Part shown: in pieces, positions 43,758-58,743 of the stretch
How the letters are laid out: every line of letters starts with the position of its first letter
Position numbering within the stretch: position 1 is the first letter of the stretch
Origin: Cumulibacter manganitolerans
GTDB taxonomy: Bacteria; Actinomycetota; Actinomycetes; Mycobacteriales; Antricoccaceae
NCBI RefSeq assembly: GCF_009602465.1
Contig: NZ_WBKP01000002.1
Coordinates: 62,001-126,000, forward strand
Direction: 5' to 3'
Length of the DNA stretch: 64,000 bases
The notes under the pieces: model-generated
The model's database searches: none
Told to the model about the DNA's origin: nothing
The model's input: the letters and a program-made list of their open reading frames with translations, nothing else
Program-made: the position numbers and the translations under genes

Positions 43758-44957
43758 TTGACTGTGGTCATCCTCAGCCAGATCCTCGGCGGCGCCGGTC
43801 TTGCCGCGGGTATTTCGGTGGGTGCGCTGCTGGCCCAGGACATGCTCGGCTCCGACGCCCTCTCCGGAGTGCCGACGGGCCTGTTCACCCTCGGGTCCGC
43901 GCTGGCCGCGTTCCTGGTGGGCCGATCCACGCAGCGGTTTGGCCGACGAGTGGGCCTGGCCTACGGCTTCATCGCCGGCGGGCTCGGGGCCGCTGGCGTC
44001 GTCGCGGCCGCGGTTCTCGACAATGTGCCGCTGCTGTTCCTCGCCCTGTTCATCTACGGCTCGGGCACCGCCACCAACCTCCAGGCCCGCTACGCCGGCA
44101 CCGACCTCGCTCCCGCGAACAAGCGCGGCTTCGGCACCAGCATGGCCATGGTCGCGACCACCATCGGTGCCGTCGCTGGCCCGAACCTGATCGATCCCAT
44201 GGGTGCCTTCGCTGACTCGGTGGGTGTGCCGACATTGGCCGGGCCGTTCATCCTCGCTGCCGTCGCCTATGGCGCCGCGGGCCTCGTGCTGTTCATGCTC
44301 CTGCGCCCGGACCCGTATCTATTAGCTCGACGCATCGCCACGGAGACTGCGGCGAAGGAACCCAACGGCTCGGCAAACAGGGCGGTGCCGAAGGTCGGAA
44401 TCGGCGCATACGTGGGTGCCACGGTGATGGTCCTGACCCAGATCGTGATGATCGCCATCATGACGATGACCCCGATCCACATGCGCGCCCATCACCACGA
44501 GATGGCCGCCGTCGGCCTGGTCATCGGCATGCACATCGGCGCGATGTGGCTGCCGTCCCTGTTCACCGGCATCCTGGTGGACAAGCTCGGCCGCACCCCC
44601 ATGGTCATCGCGTCCGGGGTGACGCTGCTGCTCGCCGGGGTGCTCGCCGCGACCGCGCCGGGCGACTCGCTCGGCCTGCTGATCCTCGCGCTCGTACTGC
44701 TCGGCCTCGGCTGGAACTTCGGTCTCGTATCCGGCACCGCGCTCGTGGTGGACGCCACCGTGCCGCAGAACCGGCCGCGCACGCAGGGCACCATCGACGT
44801 GCTCATCGCCCTGGCCGGCGCCGGAGGCGGAGCAATGTCCGGAATGGTCATGTCCGCGACCAGCTACCAGGCACTCTCTCTCGGCGGTGGCATCCTCGCC
44901 CTCCTGCTCATACCGGTGCTGCTGTGGGCCCGTGCCCGCCGCGCTGTTACCGCATGA
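43758..44957 (+). CDS. MFS transporter with unclear start (first gene of the cargo cassette)
   Basis: About 399 residues from a TTG at 43758. Twelve hydrophobic segments, first ILSQILGGAGLAAGISVGAL; loop motif FLVGRSTQRFGRRVGLA after helix 2. Family similarity seems to begin about 10 residues earlier (EEAARVHQRTLTVV), where no ATG or GTG exists, so the 5' end may have been lost or altered at the cassette border. Substrate unknown; the His-rich loop MRAHHHEM is noticeable. The next genes are trxB-trxA, 275 bases on. Confidence 0.75.
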   Translation: MTVVILSQILGGAGLAAGISVGALLAQDMLGSDALSGVPTGLFTLGSALAAFLVGRSTQRFGRRVGLAYGFIAGGLGAAGVVAAAVLDNVPLLFLALFIYGSGTATNLQARYAGTDLAPANKRGFGTSMAMVATTIGAVAGPNLIDPMGAFADSVGVPTLAGPFILAAVAYGAAGLVLFMLLRPDPYLLARRIATETAAKEPNGSANRAVPKVGIGAYVGATVMVLTQIVMIAIMTMTPIHMRAHHHEMAAVGLVIGMHIGAMWLPSLFTGILVDKLGRTPMVIASGVTLLLAGVLAATAPGDSLGLLILALVLLGLGWNFGLVSGTALVVDATVPQNRPRTQGTIDVLIALAGAGGGAMSGMVMSATSYQALSLGGGILALLLIPVLLWARARRAVTA

Positions 44958-45169
44958 CCACCCACGCCCTACGAACGGATGATCCCAAGGTGCGCTCAAC
45001 GTCTTGATCGCGCGGGCTGGAGCGGGGTGGTGGAGCGATGTCCGGGAGGTCGTCACCCTCTCCGTTTTTCACGGGCTTGCTCTCGGCGGGGGCGTACTCG
45101 CTCCGCCACTGCCCCGCATCCGACCCAGTCACGCCACGGCCGCCTCCCGGCAGCTGCCCGGCGGCCGGG

Positions 45170-45210
45170 CCACCTAATCGCGTTCCCGAATACCACCTAA
45201 TGACGTTCCC
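45170..45210. promoter_or_regulatory. Tandem direct repeat upstream of trxB
   Basis: CCACCTAATCGCGTTCCC (45170-45187) and CCACCTAATGACGTTCCC (45193-45210) are near-identical 18-bp units starting 23 bases apart, just upstream of the trxB ribosome-binding site (GAAGAGG). They probably form a regulator or sigma-factor site. They do not match the ArsR-rhodanese operator. Confidence 0.6.
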
Positions 45211-45231
45211 AAGAAGAGGTTCTGCTTCACC

Positions 45232-46212
45232 ATGCTTGATGTCATCATCATCGGCTCTGGTCCCGCCGGGTTCACTGCCGCCATCTACGCCGCGCGCGCG
45301 AATCTGCGGCCACTGATCATCGCCAGTTCCGTCGAGGTCGGCGGCGAACTGATGAACACCACCGAGGTCGAGAACTTCCCGGGCTTCCCCGAGGCGATCA
45401 TGGGTCCCGATCTGATGGCGAAGATGCAGCAACAGGCCGAGCGCTTCGGCGCCGAAGTCGTCTACGACGACGCGGCCGAGCTCGACCTCCACGGGGCAGT
45501 CAAGCGCGTTACGCTCGGGTCAGGACGAGTCGAGGAGACACGCTCGTTGATCTTCGCGACCGGTTCGGCCTACCGGAAGCTGAACATCCCACGCGAGGAT
45601 GAGCTGTCCGGGCACGGCCTCTCGTGGTGCGCGACGTGCGACGGATTCTTCTTCCGAGAAAAGGAGATCGCGGTCGTCGGCGGCGGCGACTCCGCGATGG
45701 AGGAGGCTACATTCCTCACCAAGTTCGCGTCGAAGGTGTATTTGATTCACCGCCGTGACGAGTTTCGCGCCTCGAAGATCATGCAGAGGCGCGCCTTCGA
45801 CAACGCCAAGATCGAGGTCATCTGGAACAGCGAGGTCGCCGAGCTGAAGGGCCAGGGCCAGCTGAGCGGCGTCGTCCTGCGTGACCTCGTCACGCGTGAT
45901 ACGCGCGAACTTGCGCTCGACGGGCTGTTCATCGCCATCGGCAACGACCCCCGGACACACCTCATCCACGGGAAGCTCGACCTGACCTCTCAGGGCACGA
46001 TCGCGGTCGATGGACGATCCTCTCGCACCTCGGTCCCGGGCATCTTCGCCGCGGGCGATGTCATCGACCCCACATACCGCCAGGCCGTGACAGCCGCCGC
46101 CAGCGGTACCGTCGCCGCGCTCGATGCCGAGCACTACCTCGCCACTCTCGACGATGTCTTCCCAACGCTCGTCGACGCCGCCACGACCGCATCACCTGAG
46201 GAGAAACCATGA
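45232..46212 (+). CDS. trxB: Thioredoxin reductase
   Basis: 326 residues, full length. FAD-binding IIIGSGPAGFTAAIYAARAN at the start, redox-active WCATCDG (Cys133 and Cys136), NADPH motif VVGGGDSAMEEATFL and C-terminal FAD motif GIFAAGDV. It passes electrons from NADPH to thioredoxin in the cytosol. ATG at 45232, GAAGAGG 12 bases upstream. Its stop overlaps the thioredoxin start (ATGA). This is a cargo-encoded pair, presumably in addition to the chromosomal system, and likely serves the rhodanese, OsmC and CcdA proteins of the cassette. Confidence 0.94.
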   Translation: MLDVIIIGSGPAGFTAAIYAARANLRPLIIASSVEVGGELMNTTEVENFPGFPEAIMGPDLMAKMQQQAERFGAEVVYDDAAELDLHGAVKRVTLGSGRVEETRSLIFATGSAYRKLNIPREDELSGHGLSWCATCDGFFFREKEIAVVGGGDSAMEEATFLTKFASKVYLIHRRDEFRASKIMQRRAFDNAKIEVIWNSEVAELKGQGQLSGVVLRDLVTRDTRELALDGLFIAIGNDPRTHLIHGKLDLTSQGTIAVDGRSSRTSVPGIFAAGDVIDPTYRQAVTAAASGTVAALDAEHYLATLDDVFPTLVDAATTASPEEKP

Positions 46213-46532
46213 CAACGCGGACGACCACCTCCGCCACCTTCGAAACGGACGTACTACAGGCCGACGGCCCTGTGCTCGTTGATTTCTGGGCCGAATGGTG
46301 CGGTCCATGCCGCATGGTGGCCCCCGTCCTCGACGCTATCCAATCTGCTCACGCCGACAAGATCCGCATCTTCAAGCTCAACGTCGACGAGAACCCTGAC
46401 CTTGCAACGAAATACCAGATCACTTCGATCCCGGCGATGAAGGTCTTCGTCGGCGGTGAACCCGTCAAGACGATCGTGGGCGCCAAGCCTCGCCACGCTC
46501 TTGAGGCCGACCTCGCCGAGTGGATCGCCTGA
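46209..46532 (+). CDS. trxA: Thioredoxin
   Basis: 107 residues, canonical thioredoxin: VLVDFWAEWCGPCRMVAPVL with Cys31/Cys34, the buried Asp in VDENPD, cis-proline in TSIPAMKVF and C-terminal helix. GGAG precedes the ATG, which overlaps trxB. It reduces cytosolic disulfides and persulfides and can feed electrons to CcdA, whose gene lies at 55051 in the same cassette. Confidence 0.94.
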   Translation: MTTRTTTSATFETDVLQADGPVLVDFWAEWCGPCRMVAPVLDAIQSAHADKIRIFKLNVDENPDLATKYQITSIPAMKVFVGGEPVKTIVGAKPRHALEADLAEWIA

Positions 46533-46634
46533 CCGGACCCACGCGTCCTCGGAATACCGGATCATGACGAGCGAGTCACGGTCACAGCGGACGCTACGGA
46601 GCAGTAAAGAAGGCTGTAGTGAGGGGCCGATCCG

Positions 46635-47321
46635 TCACGCCGCCTGACCGTTTTCGACTGGTAGGCCGCTCAGGTGCCATTCGAGCATGCCGTCCTGGAG
46701 CCGGCGAGCGGGCACTCCTTGATCGTGGAGAAGATTGACGGCCTCGTAAGCCAGGACGCAGTATGCGCCGCGACAGTAGGCGACGACTTCCTGGTCCTCG
46801 GGAAGATCACCGAGCCGTTCCGCGAGCTCGTCGAGCGGGAGTGAGCGCGCGCCGGGTACGTGGGCGAACTCGTACTCTTCCCGGGGGCGGACATCGATCA
46901 CCGTCACCCGGCCGTCGGCGGCCTTGGCCAGTAGTTCCTCACGGCTGGTCTCGGCGGTCTGATCGACCGGAGCCGTCGGGTCGAGGCCGAGGTAGTCGTC
47001 GCGGGCGCGGCGAACGTCGGCGACTCGGTCCGTCGCGACGGCGCGTAACTGCTCGTAGAGGCGGATGACGTCGAGGCCGGCCACGTTGTAGTAGATCTTC
47101 GTCCCCTCGCGGCGGGTGGTGACAAGACCTGCCTGCCTGAGCACCTGCAGATGCGCGGACGCCGTGGTCAGGCCGAGGTCGGCTGCTGCGGCAAGCTTCT
47201 CGACACTGCGTTCGCCCTGGACGAGCAGGTCGAGCAGCTCCAGTCGTTTTCCGTTGCCAACGGCCTTGCCGACGCGTGCGATCTGATCGAACAGCTCGGT
47301 CTTCTTCTGACGATCCCCCAT
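46635..47321 (-). CDS. ArsR-family regulator fused to a rhodanese domain (unit 1)
   Basis: 228 residues from ATG 47321, with GGAGG 6 bases upstream; a start at 47348 lacks such a site. Residues 10-95 form an ArsR winged HTH (GNGKRLELLDLLVQGERSVE, LTTASAHLQVLRQAGLV) without the CxC metal motif of ArsR/SmtB. Residues 130-222 form a rhodanese domain with loop YCRGAYC (Cys183, Cys188). The paired cysteines at the ends of the loop suggest sensing of sulfane sulfur or persulfide. It is divergent from the MBL-rhodanese gene; two operator-like sites lie in the intergenic region, one adjoining its start, so autoregulation is likely. Confidence 0.9.
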   Translation of the reverse strand: MGDRQKKTELFDQIARVGKAVGNGKRLELLDLLVQGERSVEKLAAAADLGLTTASAHLQVLRQAGLVTTRREGTKIYYNVAGLDVIRLYEQLRAVATDRVADVRRARDDYLGLDPTAPVDQTAETSREELLAKAADGRVTVIDVRPREEYEFAHVPGARSLPLDELAERLGDLPEDQEVVAYCRGAYCVLAYEAVNLLHDQGVPARRLQDGMLEWHLSGLPVENGQAA

Positions 47322-47325
47322 CACA

Positions 47326-47382
47326 TCCTCCAAAATTTTGTGGAACACTGGATGTGAGCCTATTCCAGGTTCTTGTGGAACA
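47326..47382. promoter_or_regulatory. Two operator-like sites between the ArsR-rhodanese and MBL-rhodanese genes
   Basis: Main site 47361-47382: TATTCCA-N8-TGGAACA, an inverted repeat. Second, degenerate site 47326-47347: TCCTCCA-N8-TGGAACA, 35 bp away. The main site recurs exactly, with the same spacer length, at 57443-57464 beside the second ArsR-rhodanese gene. These are the probable binding sites of the two regulators. Confidence 0.8.
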
Positions 47383-47386
47383 TCAG

Positions 47387-47410: not shown

Positions 47411-47428
47411 GGGACAGGAGTGAATACC

Positions 47429-48790
47429 GTGGGACAGTTCGATCTCATCCCGGTCGTCGACGAAGGTCTGGGTAACTCGACGTATCTGCTGGATGTCGGG
47501 GGCGGTCGCGCCCTGGTGATGGACCCGGAGCGCGACTTGCGGCAGGTGCGTGCCGAGGCGCAGCGGCGCGGGCTGCGCATCGCCTGGGCGATCGAGACAC
47601 ACATGCACGCCGACTTCATCTCGGGAGTGCGTGAGCTCGCCGCAGTGGAGGGAGCCGGTGTGCTGGCACCCGAGGTGGGCCCGCGTGGTTTCGAAGTGCA
47701 CGGTCTCAGCGACGGCGATACCGTGCCGGTCGGCTCGTTCGCGTTGCAGGCGCTGCACACCCCAGGGCATTCTCCGGAGCACCTGTCGTATTTGCTGTGG
47801 GATGGGGACCGAATCGCCGGAGTGTTCACCGGAGGTTCGTTGATGGTCGGCACGGCCGGGCGTACGGACTTGGTGAGCCCAGATCAGACGGTGCCGTTGG
47901 CGCGGGCACAGTTTCACTCGTTGCAGCGGCTGATGGAGTTGCCCGACGAGACGCCGGTGTGGCCGACACACGGAGCGGGCTCGTTCTGCTCGGCGTCCTC
48001 GGGTGATCAGCGGGTGAGCACCATCGGCCGCGAGCGTGCGACGAACCCGCTGCTGCAGGTCGCTGGGGAGGAGGAGTTCGTTGACGCGTTAGTGGGCTCG
48101 ATGGGGACGTTCCCGGATTACTTCCTGCGGCTGGGTGAGGTCAACGAGGCCGGGCCGGTCATCTTGGGCGAGACACCAGCGCTGACGGCCTTGGGCGCGG
48201 AAGAGGTGCGCACGGCGATCGCGGAGGGCGCGCAGGTCGTTGACGTGCGTGCAGCGGCCGATTACGCCGCCGGTCATGTGCCGGGTTCGCTGTCGATCAC
48301 GCTGCGATCGGTGTTCTCCACGTGGCTCGGGTGGCTGGCAGATCCCACCCGCCCGGTCATCGTCGTGCGCAACCACGACCAGCGTGTCGAGGACATTGTC
48401 TGGGGTGCGGCCAACGTCGGTTTCGACGCTCTTGCCGGCGAGCTCGCCGGCGGTCTGCCGGCCTGGCAGGCCGCCGGACAACCGGCCGCGACCGGACGGA
48501 TGGCTCGCGGTGACGAGCTCGTCGCCGACGATACTGTGCTGGATGTGCGTCAGGCGCCGGAGTTCGCCGCCGCGCACGTGCCGGGAGCGGTCAACATCGA
48601 ACTCGGGGCGTTGACCGAGAGACTCGAGGAGGTCCCTGGCGGGCCGGTGCTGGTCATGTGCGGGCATGGCGAGCGTGCCATGGGGGCGGCCAGCATCCTC
48701 GAACGCGCAGGACGCACCGACGTCCGCGTCCTGGACGGCGGCCCCGAGGACTGGGTCGCCGCGACAGGCCGCCAACTGCAGGTCCCGTGA
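47429..48790 (+). CDS. MBL-fold protein with two rhodanese domains (persulfide dioxygenase-like)
   Basis: 453 residues from GTG 47429 (GGAG, 8 bases). Residues 1-200 are a metallo-beta-lactamase domain of the ETHE1/CstB type: THMHADFISG (His58, His60, Asp62), HTPGHSPEH (His110, His114), THGAGS (His181). ETHE1 has an iron-binding Asp in the FTGD motif; here the motif is FTGGSL, with Gly136. Rhodanese 1 (about 255-350) has no active-site Cys (VRNHDQR); rhodanese 2 (about 360-450) has MCGHGER with Cys411. Relatives oxidise persulfide to sulfite and transfer sulfur. The missing ligand makes dioxygenase activity uncertain. It is co-transcribed with the MFS gene (TGATG overlap). Confidence 0.88.
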   Translation: MGQFDLIPVVDEGLGNSTYLLDVGGGRALVMDPERDLRQVRAEAQRRGLRIAWAIETHMHADFISGVRELAAVEGAGVLAPEVGPRGFEVHGLSDGDTVPVGSFALQALHTPGHSPEHLSYLLWDGDRIAGVFTGGSLMVGTAGRTDLVSPDQTVPLARAQFHSLQRLMELPDETPVWPTHGAGSFCSASSGDQRVSTIGRERATNPLLQVAGEEEFVDALVGSMGTFPDYFLRLGEVNEAGPVILGETPALTALGAEEVRTAIAEGAQVVDVRAAADYAAGHVPGSLSITLRSVFSTWLGWLADPTRPVIVVRNHDQRVEDIVWGAANVGFDALAGELAGGLPAWQAAGQPAATGRMARGDELVADDTVLDVRQAPEFAAAHVPGAVNIELGALTERLEEVPGGPVLVMCGHGERAMGAASILERAGRTDVRVLDGGPEDWVAATGRQLQVP

Positions 48791-50064
48791 TGCCGGAGAA
48801 GATGCCGCTCAGGCTCGGGCTGCGGGCCAACGCCGCACAGTTCACGCTGCTGGTCGCGATCAACGCTCTCGTGGGCGGCATGGTGGGCCAGCAGCAGACT
48901 GTGCTGCCCCTGCTGGCCGAGGATGTCTTCGGGCTGAGCGGGTACACGTTCATCTTCACCTACGTGGCTGCGTTCGGAATCACCAAAGCAATCGCGAACT
49001 ACTTTGCGGGCACCTTCTCTGACCGGTACGGACGTAAGCCCGTCCTGATGGTCGGCTGGCTCTTCGCCATCCCGGTGCCGCTAATGCTGATCTGGGCGCC
49101 GGACTGGGGCTGGGTTGTGGCCGCGAACGTGCTCCTGGGCATCAACCAGGGACTGACCTGGTCAACGACCGTCGTGATGAAGATCGACCTCGTCGGCCCC
49201 AACCAGCGCGGCCTGGCGATGGGCCTTAACGAGGCCGCCGGCTACGGCGCCGTGGCCATCACCTCGCTGGCAGCCGGATACCTCGCCGAGCAGTACGGGC
49301 TACGCCCGGCGCCGTTCCTGCTCGGCCTGTCCTACACCGCACTGGCACTACTGCTCTCGGGCGTCTTCGTCCGGGAGACCCGCGGCCACGCCCTCCTCGA
49401 CGCAGGCCAACATGTGGCGCGCTCCGACGGGCTGCACGACCACCTCCATGCAGACCTGACGAACCGGGAAATCCTCGCCCAGACCACTTTCAAGGAACCG
49501 GCACTGTCGTCGGCGAGCCAGGCCGGCCTGGTCAATAACCTCAACTTCGGACTGTCCTGGGGACTCTTCCCGCTCCTGTTCGCCACGGCGGATCTTCCCG
49601 TGGACCAGATCGGGCTCCTGTTCGCCATCTACCCGGCCGTATGGGGAGCCGGGCAGCTCTTCACCGGTGGCCTGTCGGATCGAATCGGACGAAAACATCT
49701 CATCACCGGCGGTATGTTCGTTCAGGCCGTCGCGCTCGCGCTCATCGCCCTCGGCGACAGCTTCGCAATGTGGGCGGCCGGCACCGCGATCCTCGGCGCG
49801 GGAACAGCCATGGTGTACCCCACCCTCCTGGCTGTCATCGGTGACGTCGCCCACCCCGCGTGGCGCGGCCGCGCCGTCGGTGTGTACCGAGTCTGGCGGG
49901 ACCTCGGCTATGCCGTCGGGGCGATCGCCGGCGGCATCGTCGCTGACCTGATGGGACTGAACGCTGCGGTGTGGGCTGCTGCCGCCGTCAGCGTTGTCTC
50001 AGCCACCGGTGTTGCGGTGCGGATGTACGAAACTCATCCCCGTGTCCCTACACCACCACGGTGA
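48790..50064 (+). CDS. MFS transporter co-transcribed with the MBL-rhodanese gene
   Basis: 424 residues, about 12 membrane helices. MFS loop motif NYFAGTFSDRYGRKPVLMVG after helix 2 and a second one LFTGGLSDRIGRKHLITGG in the other half. A long cytoplasmic central loop is rich in His (HVARSDGLHDHLHADLTN). Start ATG 48790 overlaps the upstream stop by one base. Given the neighbours, it may export a sulfur oxyanion or a small thiol; the sequence does not show which. Its C-terminus (VAVRMYETHPR) is echoed by a remnant at 52225. Confidence 0.87.
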   Translation: MPEKMPLRLGLRANAAQFTLLVAINALVGGMVGQQQTVLPLLAEDVFGLSGYTFIFTYVAAFGITKAIANYFAGTFSDRYGRKPVLMVGWLFAIPVPLMLIWAPDWGWVVAANVLLGINQGLTWSTTVVMKIDLVGPNQRGLAMGLNEAAGYGAVAITSLAAGYLAEQYGLRPAPFLLGLSYTALALLLSGVFVRETRGHALLDAGQHVARSDGLHDHLHADLTNREILAQTTFKEPALSSASQAGLVNNLNFGLSWGLFPLLFATADLPVDQIGLLFAIYPAVWGAGQLFTGGLSDRIGRKHLITGGMFVQAVALALIALGDSFAMWAAGTAILGAGTAMVYPTLLAVIGDVAHPAWRGRAVGVYRVWRDLGYAVGAIAGGIVADLMGLNAAVWAAAAVSVVSATGVAVRMYETHPRVPTPPR

Positions 50065-52325: not shown

Positions 52326-52340
52326 GCGTCTGGAAGGAGT

Positions 52341-52841
52341 TCACTGGGCCGCGGGGGGCTGTGGCAGTGGGCAGCTTTGTTCGCGGCGTATGCGGAGCAC
52401 GAGCGCGATGAGCAGCAACGCTATTGACCCGGTGGCGAGGAAGGGCTGGATGGGTTCGAACATCTGTAGGGCGCCGGTGTAGCCGAGCGCGAGGAGCACT
52501 AGCTTGTTGCATACCGGGCAGCCCACGGCGAAGAAGGCTGTGATCGCGCCGATCGTGCCGAGGGAGCCGCTGCGAGTGCGGGCTTGGCCGTCTTTGCGGG
52601 CGACGTAGGTTGCAGCGACCAATCCAGCGAGCAAGCTGGTGACGACCAAGACCGGCCACGCCCAGGGCGTGGGAGGGATCTCACGGGTGAACCAGGGGGT
52701 GGAAATGAGCGCGGTGGGGATCGCGACCACGATGATGGTGGCCGCTGCGGTGAGCACGGCGAACCACCAGCGCCGCGGGGGCCAGGTGCGCAGTTCGCTG
52801 AAGGTGCTGCGGCGGGTGGAGCGGTCGGTTGTCTGGGTCAT
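52341..52841 (-). CDS. Membrane protein with intramembrane CPVC motif
   Basis: 166 residues, about four hydrophobic segments (WFAVLTAAATIIVVAIPTAL, PVLVVTSLLAGLVAATYVAR, IGAITAFFAVGCPVCNKLVL, PFLATGSIALLLIALVLRIR). The third helix carries GCPVCNK with Cys108 and Cys111, a CxxC placed as in membrane electron carriers. It sits in an operon with CcdA, DsbA-like and OsmC genes. A role in moving electrons or sulfur across the membrane is inferred; no family with a known function is recognised. Confidence 0.75.
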   Translation of the reverse strand: MTQTTDRSTRRSTFSELRTWPPRRWWFAVLTAAATIIVVAIPTALISTPWFTREIPPTPWAWPVLVVTSLLAGLVAATYVARKDGQARTRSGSLGTIGAITAFFAVGCPVCNKLVLLALGYTGALQMFEPIQPFLATGSIALLLIALVLRIRREQSCPLPQPPAAQ

Positions 52842-52870: not shown

Positions 52871-53311
52871 TCAGAGGTGTTCGGGCAGGTCGGGGTCGTG
52901 GCGGAGGGTGACGGGGTGTTCGGCGCCGTGGTCGAGGGTGTGTCCGATCGTGCAGAGTCTGTCGATGGCTCGTTCGGCTCGCTCGGTGAGCACGGTGATC
53001 TTTTCCTCGTCGAGTGCGCTCATGTTGGTGCGGATGGTCGCGGCGATCAGGTCGTAGCGCTGGCCGTCGTCGGTCTTTCGCGGGGTGACGTCGACGATCG
53101 CGGCGAAGTCCTCGCCGAGGCGGCCGGCGAGGGTGTGGTCGGTGGAGAGGAGACCGCAGGCGGCCAGCGCGAGGGCGAGTAGCTCCCCGGGAGCGAGCGC
53201 GTCGTCGGCGTCGGTGCCGCCGATGCAGACTTCTCCGCCGCGGGCGTTGCGTCCGATGTAGGTCTTGGGTCCGGTGCGTTCGATGTGCAGGGGCGTGGGC
53301 GGGGTGTTCAT
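52871..53311 (-). CDS. OsmC-family peroxiredoxin-like protein
   Basis: 146 residues. OsmC/Ohr fold with the two redox cysteines: LALAACGLLST (Cys52) and RAIDRLCTIGHTL (Cys120), plus a conserved Glu in APGELLALA. OsmC/Ohr proteins reduce organic hydroperoxides, and some act on persulfides or polysulfides. GGAG lies before the ATG. It is 29 bases upstream of the CPVC membrane protein gene in the same transcript. Confidence 0.87.
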   Translation of the reverse strand: MNTPPTPLHIERTGPKTYIGRNARGGEVCIGGTDADDALAPGELLALALAACGLLSTDHTLAGRLGEDFAAIVDVTPRKTDDGQRYDLIAATIRTNMSALDEEKITVLTERAERAIDRLCTIGHTLDHGAEHPVTLRHDPDLPEHL

Positions 53312-53342
53312 GGGGGGGCCGTCTCCGTTCTGATTGCGGGGG

Positions 53343-53861
53343 TCAGTTCATGGTGGTGAGCAGCGGCGGGTGACCGGTGGTGTCCGCGAAGGTGCGGAAG
53401 CCCTTCCAGGTCAGCCCGATGCTCTCGGTGTGGGTCATGGGGTGGAAGTTGACCTGGGCGGCGCCTTCGAGGCGCTCGTCGACGACGAGGGCGATCTGTG
53501 GTGCGGTGTCGTGTCGCAGCGCCAGCGGGGTCGCGGTGCCGGGGGTGACGTGCAGCAGCTCGGCCATCACGTGCGCGGCGGCGAATCCGAGCCGGCCGCG
53601 CGCATCGATGCGGGTGTGCAGGGTCTTCAGGTCGATCTCGGTGTCTTCGTGTGCGGTGACGAAGAACAGGTTGCCCTTCTTGTCTTTGAGGAGGAGGTTC
53701 TTGGTGAACACCCCTGGCAGGTCCCCACGCAGCCGCTTGCCCTCGTCGATGCTCGTGTGCGCCGGATACGGCACGATGGGGGCGACGATCCCGATGCCCG
53801 CCAGGTAGGTCAGCAGTGCTTCGCGTTCGGCGGTCTCGTCGATGGTGGCGGTGTCGGTCAT
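53343..53861 (-). CDS. YbaK/ProX-type aminoacyl-tRNA deacylase
   Basis: 172 residues with the YbaK/ProRS-associated fold: GDLPGVFTKNLLLKDKKGNL, FFVTAHEDTEIDLKTLHTRI, RLGFAAAHVMAELLHVTPGT, ATPLAL, VNFHPMTHTESIGL. Family members free tRNA-Pro from wrongly attached Ala or Cys. In a cassette that raises cysteine turnover, clearing Cys-tRNA-Pro would make sense, though the ProX (Ala) type is more similar. The start overlaps the upstream PLP enzyme stop (TGATG). Confidence 0.85.
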   Translation of the reverse strand: MTDTATIDETAEREALLTYLAGIGIVAPIVPYPAHTSIDEGKRLRGDLPGVFTKNLLLKDKKGNLFFVTAHEDTEIDLKTLHTRIDARGRLGFAAAHVMAELLHVTPGTATPLALRHDTAPQIALVVDERLEGAAQVNFHPMTHTESIGLTWKGFRTFADTTGHPPLLTTMN

Positions 53862-55054
53862 CAGCGGGTCACCTCGTCGAGGGCCTGGGTCAGGTCGGCG
53901 ATGAGGTCGACGGTGTCTTCCAGGCCGACCGAGAGACGGATCATCGAGTCAGTGATGCCGCGGCGCTCACGTTCGGCAGGGCTCAGGCCGTGATGGGTCG
54001 TGGTCACCGGTTGCGTTGCGAGGGATTCGGCGCCGCCGAGGCTGGGCGCGAGCGCGAAGAGGTTCAACCGGTCCGCGACGCGGCTGCTGGTCTTGCCATC
54101 GGCGTCGACCTCGATCGTGATGATGCCGCCGAATCCATGCATCTGCGACACGGCCAGCTCGTGCCCCGGAAAAGAGGGAAGGCCTGGGTAGAGAACGCGG
54201 TTCACGCGGGCGTCTGCTTCCATCGCCTCAGCGATCGCCTGCGCGGACGCATTCTGTGCGTTCACCCTGATGGTGAGAGTGCGCAGGCTCCGGGCCAGCA
54301 GTGCGGCAGGTTCCGGGGCGATCGTGGTGCCGAGGTTCTTGCGCCACGCCCACACCGGGGTGATGAGCTCCGCTGCTCCAAGGAGGAACCCGGCAGTGAC
54401 GTCGGAGTGCCCGCCCAGATACTTGGTCGCGGAGTAGACCACAATGTCGGCGCCGAGGTCGAGGGGGCGCTGGTTGACCGGTGAGGCGAAGGTGTTGTCG
54501 ATCGCGACGAGCGCACCGTAACGGTGGGCCAGGTCACTGATCGCGGCGATGTCGAAGATCTCCAGGCCCGGGTTGGTGGGGGTTTCGAAGAACACCAGTC
54601 GGGCACCGGCCTCCAGGAGCGACTCAAGCTGGTCGAGCTCGCTGCCCAGTAGGAATGTGGTCTCGATGCCCAGCAGCGGGAGCTGATCGGCCAGCAGCTC
54701 AAGGGTGCCGCCGTAGGCGTCGCCCAGACACACGATCCCGTCGCGCCCGTACTGGGCGAACACCGCCATCTCGGCGGCCATCCCGGAGCAGAACGCCAAG
54801 GCGGCTGGGGCACCCTCGATGGCGGCCATGGTTTCTTCCAGCGCGAACGTTGTCGGGTTCATCCCGTACCGGGTGTACAGAGCCCCGGGAGTGTGGCCGT
54901 CGACTACGTCCAGCAGCGCCGCGGTGTTCTCGAACGCGAACGTGGTCGTGTTGTAGGTGGGCAGGTGCGGCGCACCATGGGCATCCTTCAAGGTGGTGCC
55001 GTGGATGGACCGGGTCGACTGGCCCGGGGCGTGTGGCGTGGGGGTGTTGCTCAT
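53861..55054 (-). CDS. Cystathionine gamma-synthase/lyase-type PLP enzyme
   Basis: 397 residues, full-length Cys/Met-metabolism PLP enzyme. PLP lysine in YSATKYLGGHSDVTAG (Lys211), YTRYGMNPTTFALEETMAAI, GDAYGGTLELL and IDNTFASP. It could make cystathionine, cleave it, or release hydrogen sulfide or persulfide from cysteine or homocysteine; the family cannot be split by eye. The ATG at 55054 overlaps the CcdA stop. Located with a desulfurase, TusA and rhodanese proteins, a sulfur-mobilising lyase role is favoured. Confidence 0.9.
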   Translation of the reverse strand: MSNTPTPHAPGQSTRSIHGTTLKDAHGAPHLPTYNTTTFAFENTAALLDVVDGHTPGALYTRYGMNPTTFALEETMAAIEGAPAALAFCSGMAAEMAVFAQYGRDGIVCLGDAYGGTLELLADQLPLLGIETTFLLGSELDQLESLLEAGARLVFFETPTNPGLEIFDIAAISDLAHRYGALVAIDNTFASPVNQRPLDLGADIVVYSATKYLGGHSDVTAGFLLGAAELITPVWAWRKNLGTTIAPEPAALLARSLRTLTIRVNAQNASAQAIAEAMEADARVNRVLYPGLPSFPGHELAVSQMHGFGGIITIEVDADGKTSSRVADRLNLFALAPSLGGAESLATQPVTTTHHGLSPAERERRGITDSMIRLSVGLEDTVDLIADLTQALDEVTR

Positions 55055-55965
55055 GACGGGGAGTGGCCTTCCTCATGTGATGTTGACGCCGTTGATGACG
55101 TCAGCGCCGTGGTGGTTGGTTTCGTACGGGGTTCGGCGGGGTCGGATGTCCGAGTGCGGTGGCTTCGCCACCACCACAGGAGGGCGCCGATCACGGTGAT
55201 CAGGACCGCGACGGCGAGGATGACGAGGTTGGAGGTGCTCTGCCCGAGCCGGGCGACCCCGGTTTCGAGCTCATATTGCACGGCGATCGGCAAGATCCCG
55301 CCGCCTTCGGGGTCGCGAGCGACCACGAACAGCAGCGCACCGAGGATGATGGAGAGCAGGCCGGAGATGAGTGCATGCCAGCTATTGCGCCACCGCCTGA
55401 TCGTCAGTGTGCGAGGCGTCAGCGCGGCGCGGAGCGTGCCGGACCATCGTTTCCAGGCCAGAGCGAGCAGCAGCAGAGGCAATGCCATCCCCGCGGCGTA
55501 TACGGCCAGCAGCACGCCTCCGTAGACCGGGTTCGCTCCCACAGCGGCGATCATCAGCACCGACCCAAGGATTGGGCCGGTGCACACCCCGGCCACACCG
55601 TAGGCGGTGCCCAGTACATAGACCGTCCATGCCCGGCCGGTGTCCGCGCCCTGGCCGGTGCGAGAGAGCCCCGGCAGAGGGACTCCGGCGACCTGTATGA
55701 GGCCGAACACGACCACAACTGTCGCGACCACGCTCAGCAGCACGCCGCGGTTCTGGTTCAAAAACGCGCCCGCGGTACCGGCGAACACCCCCAATGGAAC
55801 CAGCGTGGTGATCAGCCCGAGGTAGAACACCCCGGTGCGTGCCACCAGGGTCGCCGGATGGGAGAAGGCGTACGCGAAAAACGCCGGCAGCAGCATCACC
55901 GAGCACGGCGACAGTAGGCTGAGCAGCCCGCCGAGGAACGATCCGAGGTAGCCGATGTCCATCAC
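55051..55965 (-). CDS. CcdA-type membrane thiol-disulfide electron carrier
   Basis: 304 residues, seven or so membrane helices. The two redox cysteines sit in helix motifs LLSPCSVMLLPAFF (Cys21) and GVAGVCTGPILGSV (Cys128), as in CcdA/DsbD-beta. It takes electrons from cytosolic thioredoxin and delivers them to exported thioredoxin-fold proteins. The tail is polar. GTG 55965 overlaps the DsbA-like stop as GTGA; ATG 55962 is the alternative. The neighbouring genes supply both partners (trxA at 46209, DsbA-like at 55962). Confidence 0.88.
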   Translation of the reverse strand: MMDIGYLGSFLGGLLSLLSPCSVMLLPAFFAYAFSHPATLVARTGVFYLGLITTLVPLGVFAGTAGAFLNQNRGVLLSVVATVVVVFGLIQVAGVPLPGLSRTGQGADTGRAWTVYVLGTAYGVAGVCTGPILGSVLMIAAVGANPVYGGVLLAVYAAGMALPLLLLALAWKRWSGTLRAALTPRTLTIRRWRNSWHALISGLLSIILGALLFVVARDPEGGGILPIAVQYELETGVARLGQSTSNLVILAVAVLITVIGALLWWWRSHRTRTSDPAEPRTKPTTTALTSSTASTSHEEGHSPS

Positions 55966-56642
55966 TGACTGGTTTCCTCTTCGAGTTGGGCATCGATGAT
56001 CTGTCGGAACACCTCGATGGGTTGTGCCCCCTGGATCACCTGCTCACCGACCACGAACGTCGGCGTGGAGGTCACACCGAGCGCCCGGGACTGGCTGCCC
56101 TCCTGCTCGACGGCTGCGGCAAGCTCGGGGTCGTCCAGCCCGGTTTCGAACGCGGCGAGATCGAGGCCGTCGACCTCGCCTGCGAGGGCGAGAAGCCGGT
56201 CGCGGCTAAAGTCACCGTCCCCGGTGTAGGTGTGGGCGTAGAGCACTTCGTAGAACTGCCAGAACAGGTCCTGCTGTGCTGCGGCGCGTCCGGCGATAGC
56301 GGTACTCACGGAGCTCTCGCTGAGGATCGGAGTGTCCCGCCACTCCATGCGTACGTGCCCGGCGTCGATGTACTCCTCGATCAGGGTCGGGAGCGTCTCC
56401 TCGGCGAACGCACCGCAGTACTTACACGTGAAATCGGCGTACTCGATGATCACCACAGGCGCATCCACAGCCCCCATGGCGAACGGGTCGGCGTCATCTC
56501 GACGCGCCAGATCAGCCAGAGCGTTGGACTCCGCGGACGGTGACGCCGTTGTCGCGGGGTCTTCGTTGGCGGCGGTGGTGTTCTGCGTGTTCGATCCGAT
56601 CACGGTTCCAATGCCCAACGCGAGCACGACTGCGGCGATCAC
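55962..56642 (-). CDS. Membrane-anchored DsbA-like thioredoxin-fold protein
   Basis: 226 residues counted from GTG 56642. One membrane anchor (IAAVVLALGIGTVIGS), a polar linker, then DsbA/DSBA-like domain: VVIIEYADFTCKYCGAFAEE (Cys73, Cys76), cis-proline loop TSTPTFVVGEQVIQGAQP. Upstream in frame, codons for TSTTPRRAFPWKIAAV look like a genuine cytoplasmic start of the anchor, with AAGGAG before them but no ATG, GTG or TTG; a rare ATC start is possible. It probably acts outside the membrane as a CcdA-reduced thiol protein. Confidence 0.87.
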   Translation of the reverse strand: MIAAVVLALGIGTVIGSNTQNTTAANEDPATTASPSAESNALADLARRDDADPFAMGAVDAPVVIIEYADFTCKYCGAFAEETLPTLIEEYIDAGHVRMEWRDTPILSESSVSTAIAGRAAAQQDLFWQFYEVLYAHTYTGDGDFSRDRLLALAGEVDGLDLAAFETGLDDPELAAAVEQEGSQSRALGVTSTPTFVVGEQVIQGAQPIEVFRQIIDAQLEEETSQ

Positions 56643-56792
56643 TGCGGCAATCTTCCAGGGGAAGGCCCGGCGGGGTGTGGTAGACGTAGCGATACTGATA
56701 CTCCTTGTTCAACAGACGGCGCACGCACTGCGCCCGGGTGCCCATGGGGCGATATTCCGCGTAGTTTCGGGGGTCGATGCAGGCTGCGGGGT

Positions 56793-57458
56793 TCACGCGA
56801 TGCTGAGCGTGACCCCCTTGGTCGCACGCCACTCCACGACACCCTCATCCATGGCTCTCGCGTCCACCCCGCGCTCCCGCAGCCAAGCGGCGGCCTCACG
56901 GGCCATACGACACAGCTCCCCGCGGCAGTACACGACCACCTCAGCCCCGTCTGGCAGCTCGCGATACCTCTCCTCAAGCTCGTCCTGCGGCATCGAGATC
57001 GCCGCCGGGAAGTGCGCCGCCTCGTACTCCTGGCGAGGTCGCACATCGATGACCACCATCGCCGAGGTCACCGCCGACGGGTCGATTCCCGGGGCCTGCG
57101 CCTCCGAGTACCCCATGTAGTCGTCCAGCGCCTGACGCAGCTGCGGGTAGCGCGTCAAGGCGACACGCTTGGCCGCCGTGTACAGCTCGGCAACATCGTC
57201 ACCGGCTAACTGGTACAAGACGCTCGTGCGCTCCCGGCGAGCCCGAACCAGACCGGCACGCTTCAGCGTCTGTAAATGCGCCGACGTGCTCGTCAAGCCC
57301 ATCCCCGCCATCCGGGCGAGGGTCTCGACACTGTGCTCGCCCTGGGCCATCAGCTCCATGAGCTCCAGGCGGCGACCATTGCCGAGGGCCTTCACCACCG
57401 CGGCAAAAGAGTCGAAAACGGACTCCTTGCCACCAGACTCGCTATTCCATGCATCCAT
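56793..57458 (-). CDS. ArsR-family regulator fused to a rhodanese domain (unit 2)
   Basis: 221 residues from ATG 57458. Residues 15-85 form a winged HTH (GNGRRLELMELMAQGEHSVE, LTSTSAHLQTLKRAGLVRAR), with no CxC metal site. Residues 130-215 form a rhodanese with loop YCRGELC (Cys178, Cys183), the same C-x4-C spacing as the unit-1 regulator. No ribosome-binding site is evident; the start codon itself lies in the operator and a TAGCAT -10-like element lies just upstream, so the mRNA may be leaderless. It is divergent from the cysteine desulfurase and first in the leftward unit ending with the TusA-like gene. Confidence 0.9.
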   Translation of the reverse strand: MDAWNSESGGKESVFDSFAAVVKALGNGRRLELMELMAQGEHSVETLARMAGMGLTSTSAHLQTLKRAGLVRARRERTSVLYQLAGDDVAELYTAAKRVALTRYPQLRQALDDYMGYSEAQAPGIDPSAVTSAMVVIDVRPRQEYEAAHFPAAISMPQDELEERYRELPDGAEVVVYCRGELCRMAREAAAWLRERGVDARAMDEGVVEWRATKGVTLSIA

Positions 57459-57478
57459 GGAACACAATGCTAGCATTG
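57443..57478. promoter_or_regulatory. Operator-like inverted repeat plus 14-bp palindrome at the unit-2 divergon
   Basis: TATTCCA-N8-TGGAACA (57443-57464) is identical in both half-sites and spacing to the unit-1 site at 47361. It overlaps the start codon of the regulator. Immediately beside it, CAATGCTAGCATTG (57465-57478) is a perfect palindrome containing TAGCAT, a possible -10 element in either direction. Confidence 0.8.
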
Positions 57479-57497
57479 CGGAGGAGAGGGCTTCGCT

Positions 57498-57524
57498 GTG
57501 AGCGCGACGCATCGCATGGCCTGA
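57498..57524 (+). other. Possible 8-codon leader ORF before the cysteine desulfurase
   Basis: GTG-initiated VSATHRMA-stop, preceded by the excellent ribosome-binding site GGAGGAGAGG at 7-8 base spacing, better than many genes here. It lies 82 bases upstream of the desulfurase ATG. It could be a regulatory leader peptide or simply chance. Confidence 0.35.
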
Positions 57525-57606
57525 GCGGAACAGCACTTGCCCACTGGCCTGTCGGTCACTGCCGGTGTTGACCGCAGGCGGGCCGGGTGCATTTGGAGAG
57601 GCCAGG

Positions 57607-58743
57607 ATGAGCGAACAGAAACCGATCTACCTTGACCACAACGGGACCACCCCGGTGGACCGCGAGGTGGCAGAAGCAATGTGGCCATATCTGACAGAGG
57701 TGTATGGCAACCCGTCCAGCACTACGCCCCAGGGACTGCAGGCGCGGCGTGCGGTAGAAGATGCGCGCGAGCAGGTCGCCGCGCTCCTCGCGGCCCATCC
57801 TGATGAGATCGTCTTCACCTCCGGTGGCACCGAGGCGAACAACCTCGCCATCCGCGGCGCCGCGGCTCAGGCCGCGACCCCGGTAATGGTCACCTCGGCG
57901 ATGGAACACCCCGCCACGATCGCTCCAGTGGCACACCTACGTCGACAACACGGATGGCGCGTGCATGAGCTGCCCGTGGATCACGTCACGCGGATCGTTC
58001 TAGACCAATGGCCGGCCGGGCCGATCGGACTGGGCACACTGATTCTGGCCCACAACGAGACCGGCACGATTCAGCCGATGCAAGATTTCGCCGAGACCGT
58101 CCATGCACACGGTGGTCTCGTGCACGCCGATGCTGCGCAGGCGGTCGGGAAGATTCCCGTGCAGGTCGACGACTTACATGTGGACCTGCTCAGCGTGGCC
58201 GGGCACAAGCTCTACGCCCCCAAAGGCATCGGTGCTCTCTACGTGCGCCGCGGAACATCCCTCTCGCCGGTGCTGCTCGGCGCTGGACAAGAACGAGGAA
58301 TCCGGCCGGGCACGGAGAACGTCGCCGGAATCGTCGGCCTGGGTGCCGCCGCCGAGGCTGCCGGGCGACTGCTGGCCACCGAACCGGGCCGGCAGTCAGA
58401 ACTTCGGGAACACCTGTGGCGCCGGCTGAGCGCGCGTATCCCTCACCTGGTCCGGATCACGCCAACCGAGAATGCGCTGCCGAACACGCTGATGGTCGCC
58501 GTCCCCGGACGGCTCGGCGCCGACATCCTTGACGCGGCCCCTGCCGTGGCCGCATCAACCGGCAGCGCTTGCCACGCCGGAACACACACCCCATCCGCGT
58601 CGCTGATGGCAGCAGGCCTCAGCGAGAACGTAGCGCTCGGCGCACTACGCCTAACTCTCGGGCGATCCACCTCCACAGCAGACATCGAGACCGCGGCCGA
58701 CACCTTGATTCGAGCCATAGCCGCCGAACGCCAGACGGCATGA
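57607..58743 (+). CDS. Cysteine desulfurase (NifS/IscS-like)
   Basis: 378 residues. YLDHNGTTPVDREV start, SGGTEANNLAI, PLP lysine in SVAGHKLYAPKG (Lys201), and the active-site Cys322 in TGSACHAGTHTPS. It removes sulfur from cysteine as an enzyme persulfide and passes it to carriers such as TusA. ATG 57607 has GGAGAGG upstream; an in-frame start at 57565 adds 14 residues without family similarity. It is divergent from the second ArsR-rhodanese regulator and shares its operator region. No IscU/SufU scaffold gene is adjacent, which favours a sulfur-relay role over Fe-S assembly. Confidence 0.92.
   Translation: MSEQKPIYLDHNGTTPVDREVAEAMWPYLTEVYGNPSSTTPQGLQARRAVEDAREQVAALLAAHPDEIVFTSGGTEANNLAIRGAAAQAATPVMVTSAMEHPATIAPVAHLRRQHGWRVHELPVDHVTRIVLDQWPAGPIGLGTLILAHNETGTIQPMQDFAETVHAHGGLVHADAAQAVGKIPVQVDDLHVDLLSVAGHKLYAPKGIGALYVRRGTSLSPVLLGAGQERGIRPGTENVAGIVGLGAAAEAAGRLLATEPGRQSELREHLWRRLSARIPHLVRITPTENALPNTLMVAVPGRLGADILDAAPAVAASTGSACHAGTHTPSASLMAAGLSENVALGALRLTLGRSTSTADIETAADTLIRAIAAERQTA

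What the first reader, a model, noticed from the sequence alone, without database searches (positions are those of the whole stretch)
43758..58743. Mobile thiol/sulfane-sulfur cassette built from two ArsR-rhodanese divergons
Seen: an ICE carries, in one 15-kb block, two ArsR-rhodanese fusions, an MBL/double-rhodanese protein, TusA-like carrier, cysteine desulfurase, gamma-synthase/lyase-type PLP enzyme, OsmC, YbaK/ProX deacylase, CcdA, DsbA-like protein, thioredoxin and its reductase, a CPVC membrane protein, two MFS transporters and a methyltransferase. Known: the Staphylococcus aureus cst operon pairs a persulfide-sensing regulator with rhodanese-TusA and MBL-rhodanese enzymes to resist sulfide stress. 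Inference: this is an actinobacterial, self-transmissible counterpart with its own class of sensor, extended by an envelope thiol-redox arm and cysteine quality control. Inducer could be sulfide/polysulfide, cysteine overload, or an electrophile such as hypochlorite.
Basis: partly seen in the sequence, partly recalled or inferred. Interest (0 to 1): 0.9.

Follow-up and report, generated by a model that had tools for sequence, protein, structure and literature searches.

The report
Mobile sulfur-stress cassette with rhodanese sensors
A transferable DNA element in an actinobacterium carries a block of genes that probably senses and removes toxic reactive sulfur, switched by a little-studied type of sensor protein in which a sulfur-handling part is fused to the DNA-binding part.

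Summary
The block is cargo of a roughly 50-kb element; about 29.7 kb of it occurs in five blocks at 100% reported DNA identity in Intrasporangium chromatireducens Q5-1, whose recA is only 84% identical. Its core is a CstB-like MBL-double-rhodanese plus an MFS gene opposite an ArsR-rhodanese gene. In 40 further ArsR-rhodanese loci of the phylum, 32 have such an MFS gene and 22 an MBL gene; 20 ordinary ArsR loci have neither. Both divergons carry the operator TATTCCA-N8-TGGAACA, exact nowhere else in the 3.9-Mb genome; a relaxed form lies upstream of 31 of 41 newly fetched ArsR-rhodanese genes (shuffled mean 2.0). The invariant cysteines are in the rhodanese loop, not in the HTH as in SqrR/BigR. 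Two Streptomyces plasmids carry ArsR-rhodanese, MBL-rhodanese, desulfurase, PLP enzyme, TusA and both MFS genes. The DsbA-CcdA-CPVC arm recurs on plasmids, with MBL-rhodanese in 6 of 11 loci read but ArsR-rhodanese in none. Corrections: the 'YbaK' is ProXp-ala-like; TusA lacks CPxP; MFS1-trxB-trx has no operator. The inducer is inferred. It works like cst but is not a cst operon: a new variant of a known kind.

The parts
21214..21288 (+). tRNA-Lys(TTT), likely left attachment site of the element
   Evidence: ARAGORN; its 3' end GGGGCCCACC shares 8 bases with the right junction GGAGGCCCACC at L007:7276-7286 (by eye)
21225..22961 (-). large serine recombinase (integrase)
   Evidence: Pfam Resolvase/Recombinase/Zn_ribbon
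24567..26357 (-). TraG/VirD4 coupling protein
   Evidence: Pfam
59628..63353 (+). TrwC relaxase-helicase
   Evidence: Pfam
43758..44957 (+). MFS transporter 1 (family found beside ArsR-rhodanese or TusA in relatives)
   Evidence: Pfam; Rhodococcus L005, Leucobacter L010, Streptomyces L001/L002
45232..46212 (+). thioredoxin reductase
   Evidence: Pfam; no operator upstream
46209..46532 (+). thioredoxin (WCGPC)
   Evidence: Pfam; motif
46635..47348 (-). ArsR-rhodanese A (start probably ATG at 47321); Cys pair CRGAYC
   Evidence: Pfam; alignment A1
47361..47382 (.). operator TATTCCA-N8-TGGAACA between ArsR-rhodanese A and MBL-rhodanese (a 2-mismatch copy at 47326-47347)
47429..48790 (+). CstB-like MBL + degenerate rhodanese + active-type rhodanese (C411); predicted persulfide dioxygenase
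   Evidence: Pfam; alignment to 3r2u and 3tp9; Cys positions
48787..50064 (+). MFS transporter 2 (linked to ArsR-rhodanese and MBL genes)
   Evidence: Pfam; 32 of 40 relatives' loci
50079..50759 (+). class I methyltransferase
   Evidence: Pfam
51641..51931 (-). TusA-like carrier, CPxP replaced by CARL, both Cys kept
   Evidence: Pfam; alignment; Cys
52341..52841 (-). CPVC membrane protein of the DsbA-CcdA-CPVC triad
52871..53311 (-). OsmC-like protein
   Evidence: Pfam
53343..53861 (-). ProXp-ala-like tRNA-editing protein
   Evidence: Pfam; best PDB match 5vxb
53861..55054 (-). Cys/Met-metabolism PLP enzyme of an unassigned subfamily
   Evidence: Pfam; below the cut-offs of the 25 NCBIfam matches shown; 70 relatives' loci
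55051..55965 (-). CcdA-like membrane protein (C21, C128)
   Evidence: Pfam; Cys
55962..56642 (-). DsbA-like envelope protein (CKYC)
   Evidence: Pfam; PDB; motif
56793..57536 (-). ArsR-rhodanese B (start uncertain, near 57461); Cys pair CRGELC
   Evidence: Pfam; alignment A1
57443..57464 (.). operator TATTCCA-N8-TGGAACA of divergon B
57565..58743 (+). cysteine desulfurase family protein
   Evidence: Pfam; below the NCBIfam cut-offs

Best explanation
A horizontally transferred reactive-sulfur (persulfide/polysulfide) defence cassette. Two ArsR-rhodanese repressors bind the same dyad operator in two divergent promoters. When sulfane sulfur rises, the rhodanese-loop cysteines (CRGxxC) accept it, probably forming a persulfide or a di/polysulfide between the two Cys, and the repressor lets go. 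Divergon A then makes the MBL-rhodanese, which oxidises low-molecular-weight persulfide (probably mycothiol persulfide) to sulfite or thiosulfate, and MFS2, which exports a product. Divergon B makes the desulfurase, the PLP lyase/sulfhydrylase, OsmC and an Ala-tRNAPro-type deacylase, which handle cysteine-derived sulfur, plus the DsbA-CcdA-CPVC arm, which restores envelope thiols. Shown here: gene content, shared operator-like sites, conserved Cys placement, recurrent co-mobility, recent transfer. Inferred: binding, inducer, chemistry of sensing, dioxygenase activity, transporter substrates, role of each divergon-B enzyme.
For: MBL-rhodanese aligns over 434 and 426 residues with 3tp9 and 3r2u, keeping ETHMHADF, the GAGSxC loop and the C-terminal rhodanese Cys; the first rhodanese lacks a Cys in all three (query Cys only at 187 and 411). 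ArsR-rhodanese: C183 and C188 invariant in 13 of 13; in a second set C183 in 15 of 15, C188 nearly invariant; no conserved Cys in the HTH of either set. Operator: 6 matches at <=3 mismatches, all at the two divergons, versus 0.69 expected in the window; only these two exact sites in the genome; relaxed dyad at <=1 mismatch in 50 of 74 upstream regions (shuffled mean 3.4-3.5), in 31 of 41 regions fetched after the motif was framed (mean 2.0, maximum 6 of 100 shuffles), and in 16 of 23 of these after removing similar regions (mean 1.2, maximum 4). Neighbours: MFS2 32 of 40 and MBL 22 of 40 ArsR-rhodanese loci versus 0 of 20 ArsR loci without rhodanese. PLP family: cysteine desulfurase 23, ArsR-rhodanese 17+2, DsrE 16, SQR-like 11, TauE 10 of 70 loci (L009 is the element's own copy) versus 0 of 20 other Cys/Met PLP loci. 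Streptomyces plasmids with the same gene set. DsbA-CcdA with MBL-rhodanese in 6 of 11 plasmid loci read.
Against: No experiment and no inducer. Sensor A passes NCBIfam's 'metalloregulator ArsR/SmtB' subfamily cut-off (72 versus 55 bits). ArsR-rhodanese and the DsbA-CcdA-CPVC triad were seen together only in this element and its copy: 0 of 40 phylum loci had CcdA, DsbA, OsmC, ProXp or TusA, 0 of 11 plasmid CcdA loci had ArsR-rhodanese. 24 of 74 upstream regions lack the relaxed dyad at <=1 mismatch, and the window has 12 such relaxed matches, most of them not at promoters. MFS1-trxB-trx and tusA have no operator of their own. No SQR and no TauE gene among the block's Pfam hits. The envelope arm sits near copper- or mercury-type genes on some plasmids. 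The AsnC fragment and the MFS remnant suggest decay or assembly from pieces.
Confidence: 0.66

Rival explanations
1. A metal or metalloid (copper, mercury, arsenic, chromate) stress cassette: thiol and rhodanese enzymes repair metal damage, and ArsR-rhodanese senses a metal.
For: DsbA-CcdA-CPVC lies beside a P-type ATPase and CopY/M56 genes in Pseudonocardia; CPVC lies near a heavy-metal P-type ATPase in S. mirabilis; merA is near in R. qingshengii VT6. The Q5-1 species name points to chromate reduction. NCBIfam and the records call the regulators 'metalloregulator'.
Against: No conserved HTH Cys in alignments A1/A2; no metal transporter, reductase or metallochaperone recognised in the block (the MFS substrates are unknown); neighbours of ArsR-rhodanese are MFS2, MBL, DsrE and SQR-like genes.
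Confidence: 0.12
2. A composite of two or three independently mobile modules that happen to lie together: divergon A, the PLP/desulfurase module and the DsbA-CcdA-CPVC module, not one physiological system.
For: Modules are found without the others: divergon A, the triad or DsbA-CcdA, PLP with desulfurase; MFS1-trxB-trx lacks the operator; gene remnants inside the block.
Against: The two divergons share one exact operator; Streptomyces plasmids join the MBL and PLP parts under a single ArsR-rhodanese; the envelope arm lies with MBL-rhodanese in 6 of 11 plasmid loci.
Confidence: 0.3
3. A sulfur-acquisition or cysteine-catabolism cassette: the PLP lyase and desulfurase release sulfur from organosulfur compounds, and the rest handles the resulting persulfide.
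For: PLP relatives cluster with desulfurase, DsrE, SQR-like and TauE genes, in several genera named for sulfur metabolism; the deacylase may guard against alanine made by the desulfurase (inference).
Against: The commonest partners of the regulator are an MFS and an MBL gene, which suggests removal; no uptake system is evident (the MFS substrates are unknown).
Confidence: 0.15
4. An electrophile or hypochlorite response, with thioredoxin, OsmC and the DsbA/CcdA arm as the main effectors.
For: OsmC, Trx/TrxR and envelope thiol proteins are all present.
Against: None of the block's Pfam hits is a known hypochlorite-specific effector (not searched further); trx/trxB have no operator; the OsmC hit is weak.
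Confidence: 0.06

Closest known systems
Staphylococcus aureus cst operon (CstR, CstA, CstB, SQR, TauE; gene set recalled)
   Same: CstB-like MBL + degenerate rhodanese + active-type rhodanese (3r2u; that 3r2u is S. aureus CstB is recalled); a TusA-like carrier; persulfide removal under a repressor
   Different: ArsR-rhodanese instead of CsoR-type CstR; TusA not fused to rhodanese; no SQR or TauE recognised; added desulfurase, PLP enzyme, OsmC, deacylase and envelope arm; carried on a mobile element
Streptomyces coelicolor CsoR-PDO-rhodanese-sulfite transporter circuit (PMC7533328, passages read)
   Same: persulfide dioxygenase with rhodanese under a sulfane-sulfur repressor, in an actinobacterium
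   Different: CsoR-like repressor and ATACC-N6-GGTAT site there; ArsR-rhodanese and TATTCCA-N8-TGGAACA here; MFS instead of TauE
SqrR/BigR/YgaV/sHdrR sulfane-sulfur ArsR repressors (PMC12423496, PMC9774250, passages read)
   Same: ArsR fold, dyad site with ATTC...GAAT-type arms, expected persulfide sensing
   Different: their two shared Cys are in the single ArsR domain (Cys50/Cys116 in sHdrR); here in a fused rhodanese; arms 12 apart instead of 8
Mb0332 of Mycobacterium bovis (3gw2, 2kko; HTH fragment 1-100)
   Same: closest solved HTH, 60 and 55% identity to the model
   Different: only the HTH was solved; that the full protein carries a rhodanese and is the counterpart of Rv0324 is recalled. 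Rv0324 deletion is reported to give bedaquiline hypersensitivity (PMC9480834, passages); no chemical signal is named in the passages seen
Arthrobacter plasmid SUL modules (PMC6305408, passages)
   Same: plasmid-borne putative sulfur dioxygenase with rhodaneses and an MFS transporter
   Different: CsoR regulator, TauE, DUF302; no ArsR-rhodanese, PLP enzyme or desulfurase named in the passages seen

Membership tests
cst operon | CstB-like MBL-rhodanese dioxygenase | tested here: met
   nearly full-length alignment with 3r2u and 3tp9
cst operon | CsoR-type CstR repressor | tested here: not met
   regulators are ArsR-rhodanese; no CsoR among the Pfam hits of the block
cst operon | CstA (rhodanese-TusA fusion) | tested here: not met
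   TusA-like protein is a single 96-aa domain
cst operon | SQR and TauE/SafE genes | tested here: not met
   not among the Pfam hits of the block
type III persulfide dioxygenase | MBL fold with HxHxD ligands plus rhodanese with Cys | tested here: met
   C411
type III persulfide dioxygenase | O2-dependent oxidation of RSSH to sulfite | not testable with these tools
   needs enzyme assay
SqrR/BigR-type sulfane-sulfur ArsR | two conserved Cys in the ArsR domain | tested here: not met
   A1: invariant Cys only C183 and C188 in the rhodanese loop
SqrR/BigR-type sulfane-sulfur ArsR | ATTC-N8-GAAT operator | tested here: not met
   arms are ATTC-N12-GAA(C/T) here; literature motif
ArsR-rhodanese family | HTH + C-terminal rhodanese with CRGxxC loop | tested here: met
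metal-sensing ArsR/SmtB | NCBIfam metalloregulator subfamily NF033788 | tested here: met
   sensor A 72 bits, cut-off 55, (a sequence subfamily; sensor B was not scanned)
metal-sensing ArsR/SmtB | Cys or His/Asp metal ligands in the HTH domain | tested here: inconclusive
   no conserved Cys in A1; the alpha-5 His/Asp pattern is recalled and was only judged by eye
integrative and conjugative element | integrase, relaxase, coupling protein, tRNA-linked attachment | tested here: met
integrative and conjugative element | VirB4-type transfer ATPase / complete mating apparatus | tested here: inconclusive
   none among the ORFs scanned; several large ORFs match nothing; not every ORF was scanned
integrative and conjugative element | found in unrelated chromosomes | tested here: met
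   100% identical blocks in Q5-1 with recA at 84%, and a junction to other sequence
YbaK (Cys-tRNAPro deacylase) | closest relatives are YbaK | tested here: not met
   best PDB match ProXp-ala 5vxb; no YbaK entry among the 4 matches at E <= 0.001

The most novel reading that the evidence does not exclude
ArsR-rhodanese proteins are a separate, widespread class of one-component reactive-sulfur sensors in which a rhodanese is the ligand-reading domain: the enzyme loop (CRGxxC) itself takes sulfane sulfur and the resulting Cys-Cys link drives DNA release from an ATTCnA-N8-TnGAAT dyad. The class governs mobile persulfide-defence islands in several phyla. Here two such sensors with one operator join persulfide oxidation to an envelope thiol-repair arm.
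Probability: 0.5. Interest if true: 0.78.

Novelty: new variant of a known kind. Interest (0 to 1): 0.62.

Why it matters
It gives a specific, testable operator and a specific pair of cysteines for a regulator family that records file as metalloregulators and for which my listings showed no paper on the fusion (searches; open-access library only, most listed papers not read). If right, a sensor present in 46 of 296 sampled genomes of the window's phylum and in some hundreds of plasmid records with a similar protein (364 matches, 195 covering at least 80%) has the wrong label, and reactive-sulfur tolerance is an exchanged trait like metal resistance. It also ties the persulfide arm to an envelope DsbA-CcdA-CPVC arm that recurs on plasmids.

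Tried and rejected
Considered and dropped: (1) Metal sensing through HTH cysteines: no conserved Cys there, although sensor A passes NCBIfam's metalloregulator cut-off. (2) Methionine gamma-lyase or another named subfamily for the PLP enzyme: 50 NCBIfam families match, and none of the 25 shown reaches its curated cut-off; PDB relatives are spread over synthases and lyases; left unassigned. (3) Thiol S-methyltransferase (MddM-type) for the methyltransferase: the paper found (listing, passages) gave no sequence to compare; left open. (4) Arsenite link via Thioalkalivibrio transcriptomics (passages): only a rhodanese-related gene beside ars genes. (5) Contamination as the source of identity with Q5-1: unlikely, because the identical stretch ends at L007:7285 and the Q5-1 contig then has no further match to the window or its two flanking stretches; draft contigs do not exclude it fully. 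(6) A single regulon for all 15 kb: no operator before MFS1, trxB or tusA. (7) cst or SqrR membership: failed the tests listed.

Weak points of the controls: shuffles keep composition, not relatedness; several upstream regions are near-copies (L009 equals window B; L102, L106 and L107 share one site; L110-L119 hold several alike). The relaxed motif was framed on the first 34 regions (strict motif at <=1 mismatch in 7 of 34, 0.1 expected, two of the 34 being copies of the window's own). The 41 regions fetched later are the fairer test: 31 of 41; with regions sharing two or more 12-mers removed, 16 of 23. The 40 phylum loci cover 41 of 49 places listed; 2 were the window's own and the 6 weakest were not fetched. 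Some loci are cut by contig ends, so absences are lower bounds. PLP loci reach up to 10 kb each side, their control 8 kb, the ArsR sets 7 kb. PLP loci (41 of 70 titled as Pseudomonadota groups, my count) and their control (the window's class) differ in taxa. The ArsR control did show TlpA in 2 and TrxB in 1 of 20. The 11 plasmid CcdA loci are 11 of 30 records and the 12 plasmid ArsR-rhodanese loci tallied are 12 of 364; both were chosen among good hits, not at random. In the genome search DNA searches only 40 candidates were scored.

Full report
What is there. Two divergons stand out. Divergon A: ArsR-rhodanese A (-) against MBL-double rhodanese, MFS2 and a methyltransferase (+). Divergon B: ArsR-rhodanese B, then DsbA, CcdA, PLP enzyme, deacylase, OsmC and CPVC membrane protein in one run (-), followed after a gap of about 400 bases by TusA, against a cysteine desulfurase (+). 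MFS1, trxB and trx lie to the left. The Pfam match of the C5 DNA methylase at 42549-43493 covers model positions 3-118 of 324, so it looks truncated; it marks the left edge.

The element. A tRNA-Lys gene abuts a large serine recombinase; a coupling protein and a TrwC relaxase are present. No VirB4-type ATPase was recognised among the ORFs scanned, so a complete mating apparatus is not shown. In the Q5-1 record (Intrasporangium chromatireducens) the DNA is identical over window 50283-64000 (13,718 bases, no mismatch), 43707-45379, 45646-48900 and 27285-31024 and over the next 7,285 bases (reported as 100%). A chromosomal stretch about 30 kb left of the element found only short matches there (at most 465 bases; those over 200 bases 67-72% identical), and recA is 84% identical. 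The best scored match to the left part (window 24.6-26.7 kb) is 76% identical, so the two elements look mosaic. At L007:7285 the Q5-1 contig leaves the shared sequence and has no further match to the window or its flanks; I read its genes by eye as ordinary chromosome genes such as galU, moaC and moeA. The element therefore spans about 21.29 kb to 71.29 kb in window coordinates, some 50 kb; that length is inferred from the tRNA and this junction.

The persulfide core. The MBL-rhodanese aligns with 3tp9 (E 5e-72) and 3r2u (E 1e-45) over nearly its full length; all three share the ETHxHADF motif, the GAGSxC loop, a first rhodanese without Cys and a second with Cys. That 3r2u is S. aureus CstB is recalled. 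In S. coelicolor a dioxygenase with a rhodanese domain removes sulfane sulfur under a CsoR-like repressor (PMC7533328, passages). The window's genome has a second such set, a YgaP-like rhodanese, an MBL-rhodanese and an MFS2-like gene, on contig 80.

The sensors. In 13 ArsR-rhodanese proteins the only invariant cysteines are C183 and C188 in YCRGxxC; in a second set of 15, C183 is invariant and C188 nearly so. A few members have a single, unconserved Cys in the HTH part. The known sulfane-sulfur ArsR repressors share two cysteines within their single ArsR domain (PMC12423496, passages). Against this, sensor A passes NCBIfam's metalloregulator ArsR/SmtB subfamily cut-off. No solved structure among the sequence matches shown covers both domains, nor does a fold match shown; the closest HTH is a fragment of Mb0332. 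An AlphaFold model of A has pLDDT 88 and pTM 0.78; I did not measure distances on it. My searches listed no paper on an ArsR-rhodanese fusion (listings; open-access library only; most listed papers not read).

The operator. TATTCCA-N8-TGGAACA occurs exactly at 47361 and 57443, the two divergon promoters, and a 2-mismatch copy lies beside the first; the window gives 6 matches at <=3 mismatches (the two-strand readings of these three sites) against 0.69 expected. In the whole genome only those two sites are exact; at 2 mismatches there are 4 further scattered sites, and the reversed control pattern gives 3 and 3. A relaxed dyad TTCnA-N8-TnGAA is within 150 bases upstream of 50 of 74 ArsR-rhodanese genes at <=1 mismatch (shuffled mean 3.5, maximum 9 in 30 shuffles). 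In the 41 regions fetched after the motif was framed the count is 31 (mean 2.0, maximum 6 in 100 shuffles), and 16 of 23 once similar regions are removed (mean 1.2, maximum 4). The same relaxed pattern has 12 matches in the whole window at <=1 mismatch, of which 3 are at the promoters, so single relaxed hits mean little by themselves. SqrR uses ATTC-N8-GAAT (PMC9774250, passages); here similar arms are 12 apart. Site B overlaps the presumed start of ArsR-rhodanese B.

Neighbourhoods. Of 40 loci fetched, 32 have MFS2-like, 22 MBL-type, 5 DsrE and 3 SQR-like genes; none has CcdA, DsbA, OsmC, the deacylase or TusA, and PLP and desulfurase are in 1 each. Twenty ArsR loci without rhodanese have no MFS2, MBL, desulfurase or PLP gene; they show TlpA in 2 and TrxB in 1. 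On plasmids, 12 chosen ArsR-rhodanese loci have MBL in 8 and MFS2 in 7; the MBL ones are in Rhodococcus, Streptomyces, Paracoccus, Azotobacter and Deinococcus. S. mirabilis pI and Streptomyces F2 pFRL4 carry MFS2 - MBL-rhodanese against ArsR-rhodanese - desulfurase - PLP - MFS1 - TusA, the closest match to the window's set. S. mirabilis also has a methyltransferase there, which the scan did not link to the window's.

The PLP enzyme. Seventy loci from GTDB genomes, 41 of them titled as Pseudomonadota groups by my count, have a desulfurase in 23, ArsR-rhodanese in 17+2, DsrE in 16, TlpA in 13, SQR-like in 11 and TauE in 10. Twenty other members of the Cys/Met PLP family have none of these (Fisher p 0.0025 for the desulfurase, uncorrected for taxon). 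The deacylase lies beside the PLP gene also in Paracoccus pBEN and Leucobacter. Since a desulfurase makes alanine from cysteine, an Ala-tRNAPro deacylase beside it makes chemical sense; that is inference.

The envelope arm. CcdA finds 30 plasmid records. In 11 read (tally) DsbA adjoins CcdA in 11, CPVC is near in 8, MBL-rhodanese in 6, TauE in 6 and MFS2 in 2; ArsR-rhodanese in none. A 'metal-sensitive transcriptional regulator' (the CsoR type, by recall of that name) is annotated in 4 of the 11 stretches. Arthrobacter pAD51 and pLDW-10, both typed conjugative, hold DsbA-CcdA-CPVC with MBL-rhodanese, MFS2, rhodanese genes, TauE and that regulator. Pseudonocardia has the triad beside a P-type ATPase and CopY/M56 genes, M. 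kansasii has no sulfur genes nearby, and R. qingshengii VT6 has merA downstream. So the pairing of the two arms recurs, but outside this element not under ArsR-rhodanese as far as seen, and a metal link for the envelope arm remains open.

Verdict. The system works like cst and like the S. coelicolor circuit but fails the defining regulator test of each; it is a new variant of a known kind. The most interesting part is the sensor class and its operator, which make a clear prediction.

Noticed in passing
L007:2895-6749 (window frame about 66895-70749, outside the window): A CBASS-type defence set (patatin phospholipase, CD-NTase, E1-E2 fusion) at the right end of the same element.
   Followed up: partly
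L007:6758-8944 and L007:9897-12199: A second large serine recombinase, an SSB and a second TraG/VirD4 directly downstream: a tandem or accreted second element; part of it (L007:12836-18772) is 99% identical in Q5-1.
   Followed up: partly
L006 (contig 80) 2143-5968: A second persulfide-type locus in the same genome: YgaP-like membrane rhodanese, MBL-rhodanese and MFS2, without ArsR-rhodanese in the stretch read.
   Followed up: partly
window 50870-51103 and 52082-52309: Fragments inside the cassette: an Lrp/AsnC ligand domain without its HTH and a short minus-strand ORF that looks like the C-terminal end of MFS2 beside tusA (by eye).
   Followed up: no
window 42549-43493: C5 DNA methylase matching only about a third of the model, overlapping the long open frame upstream of MFS1: possible insertion point of the cassette.
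   Followed up: no
window 33664-33933 and 34066-34335: Two DUF6112 proteins close together within the transfer region.
   Followed up: no
L161, L165, L188, L189: BlaI/CopY plus M56 metallopeptidase pairs recur beside the CPVC or CcdA genes on actinobacterial plasmids; the link is unexplained.
   Followed up: no
window 21264-21506: A 243-base stretch over the tRNA-Lys 3' end and the recombinase 3' end is 97% identical on a small Q5-1 contig, although the neighbouring transfer region is only about 76% identical there.
   Followed up: no
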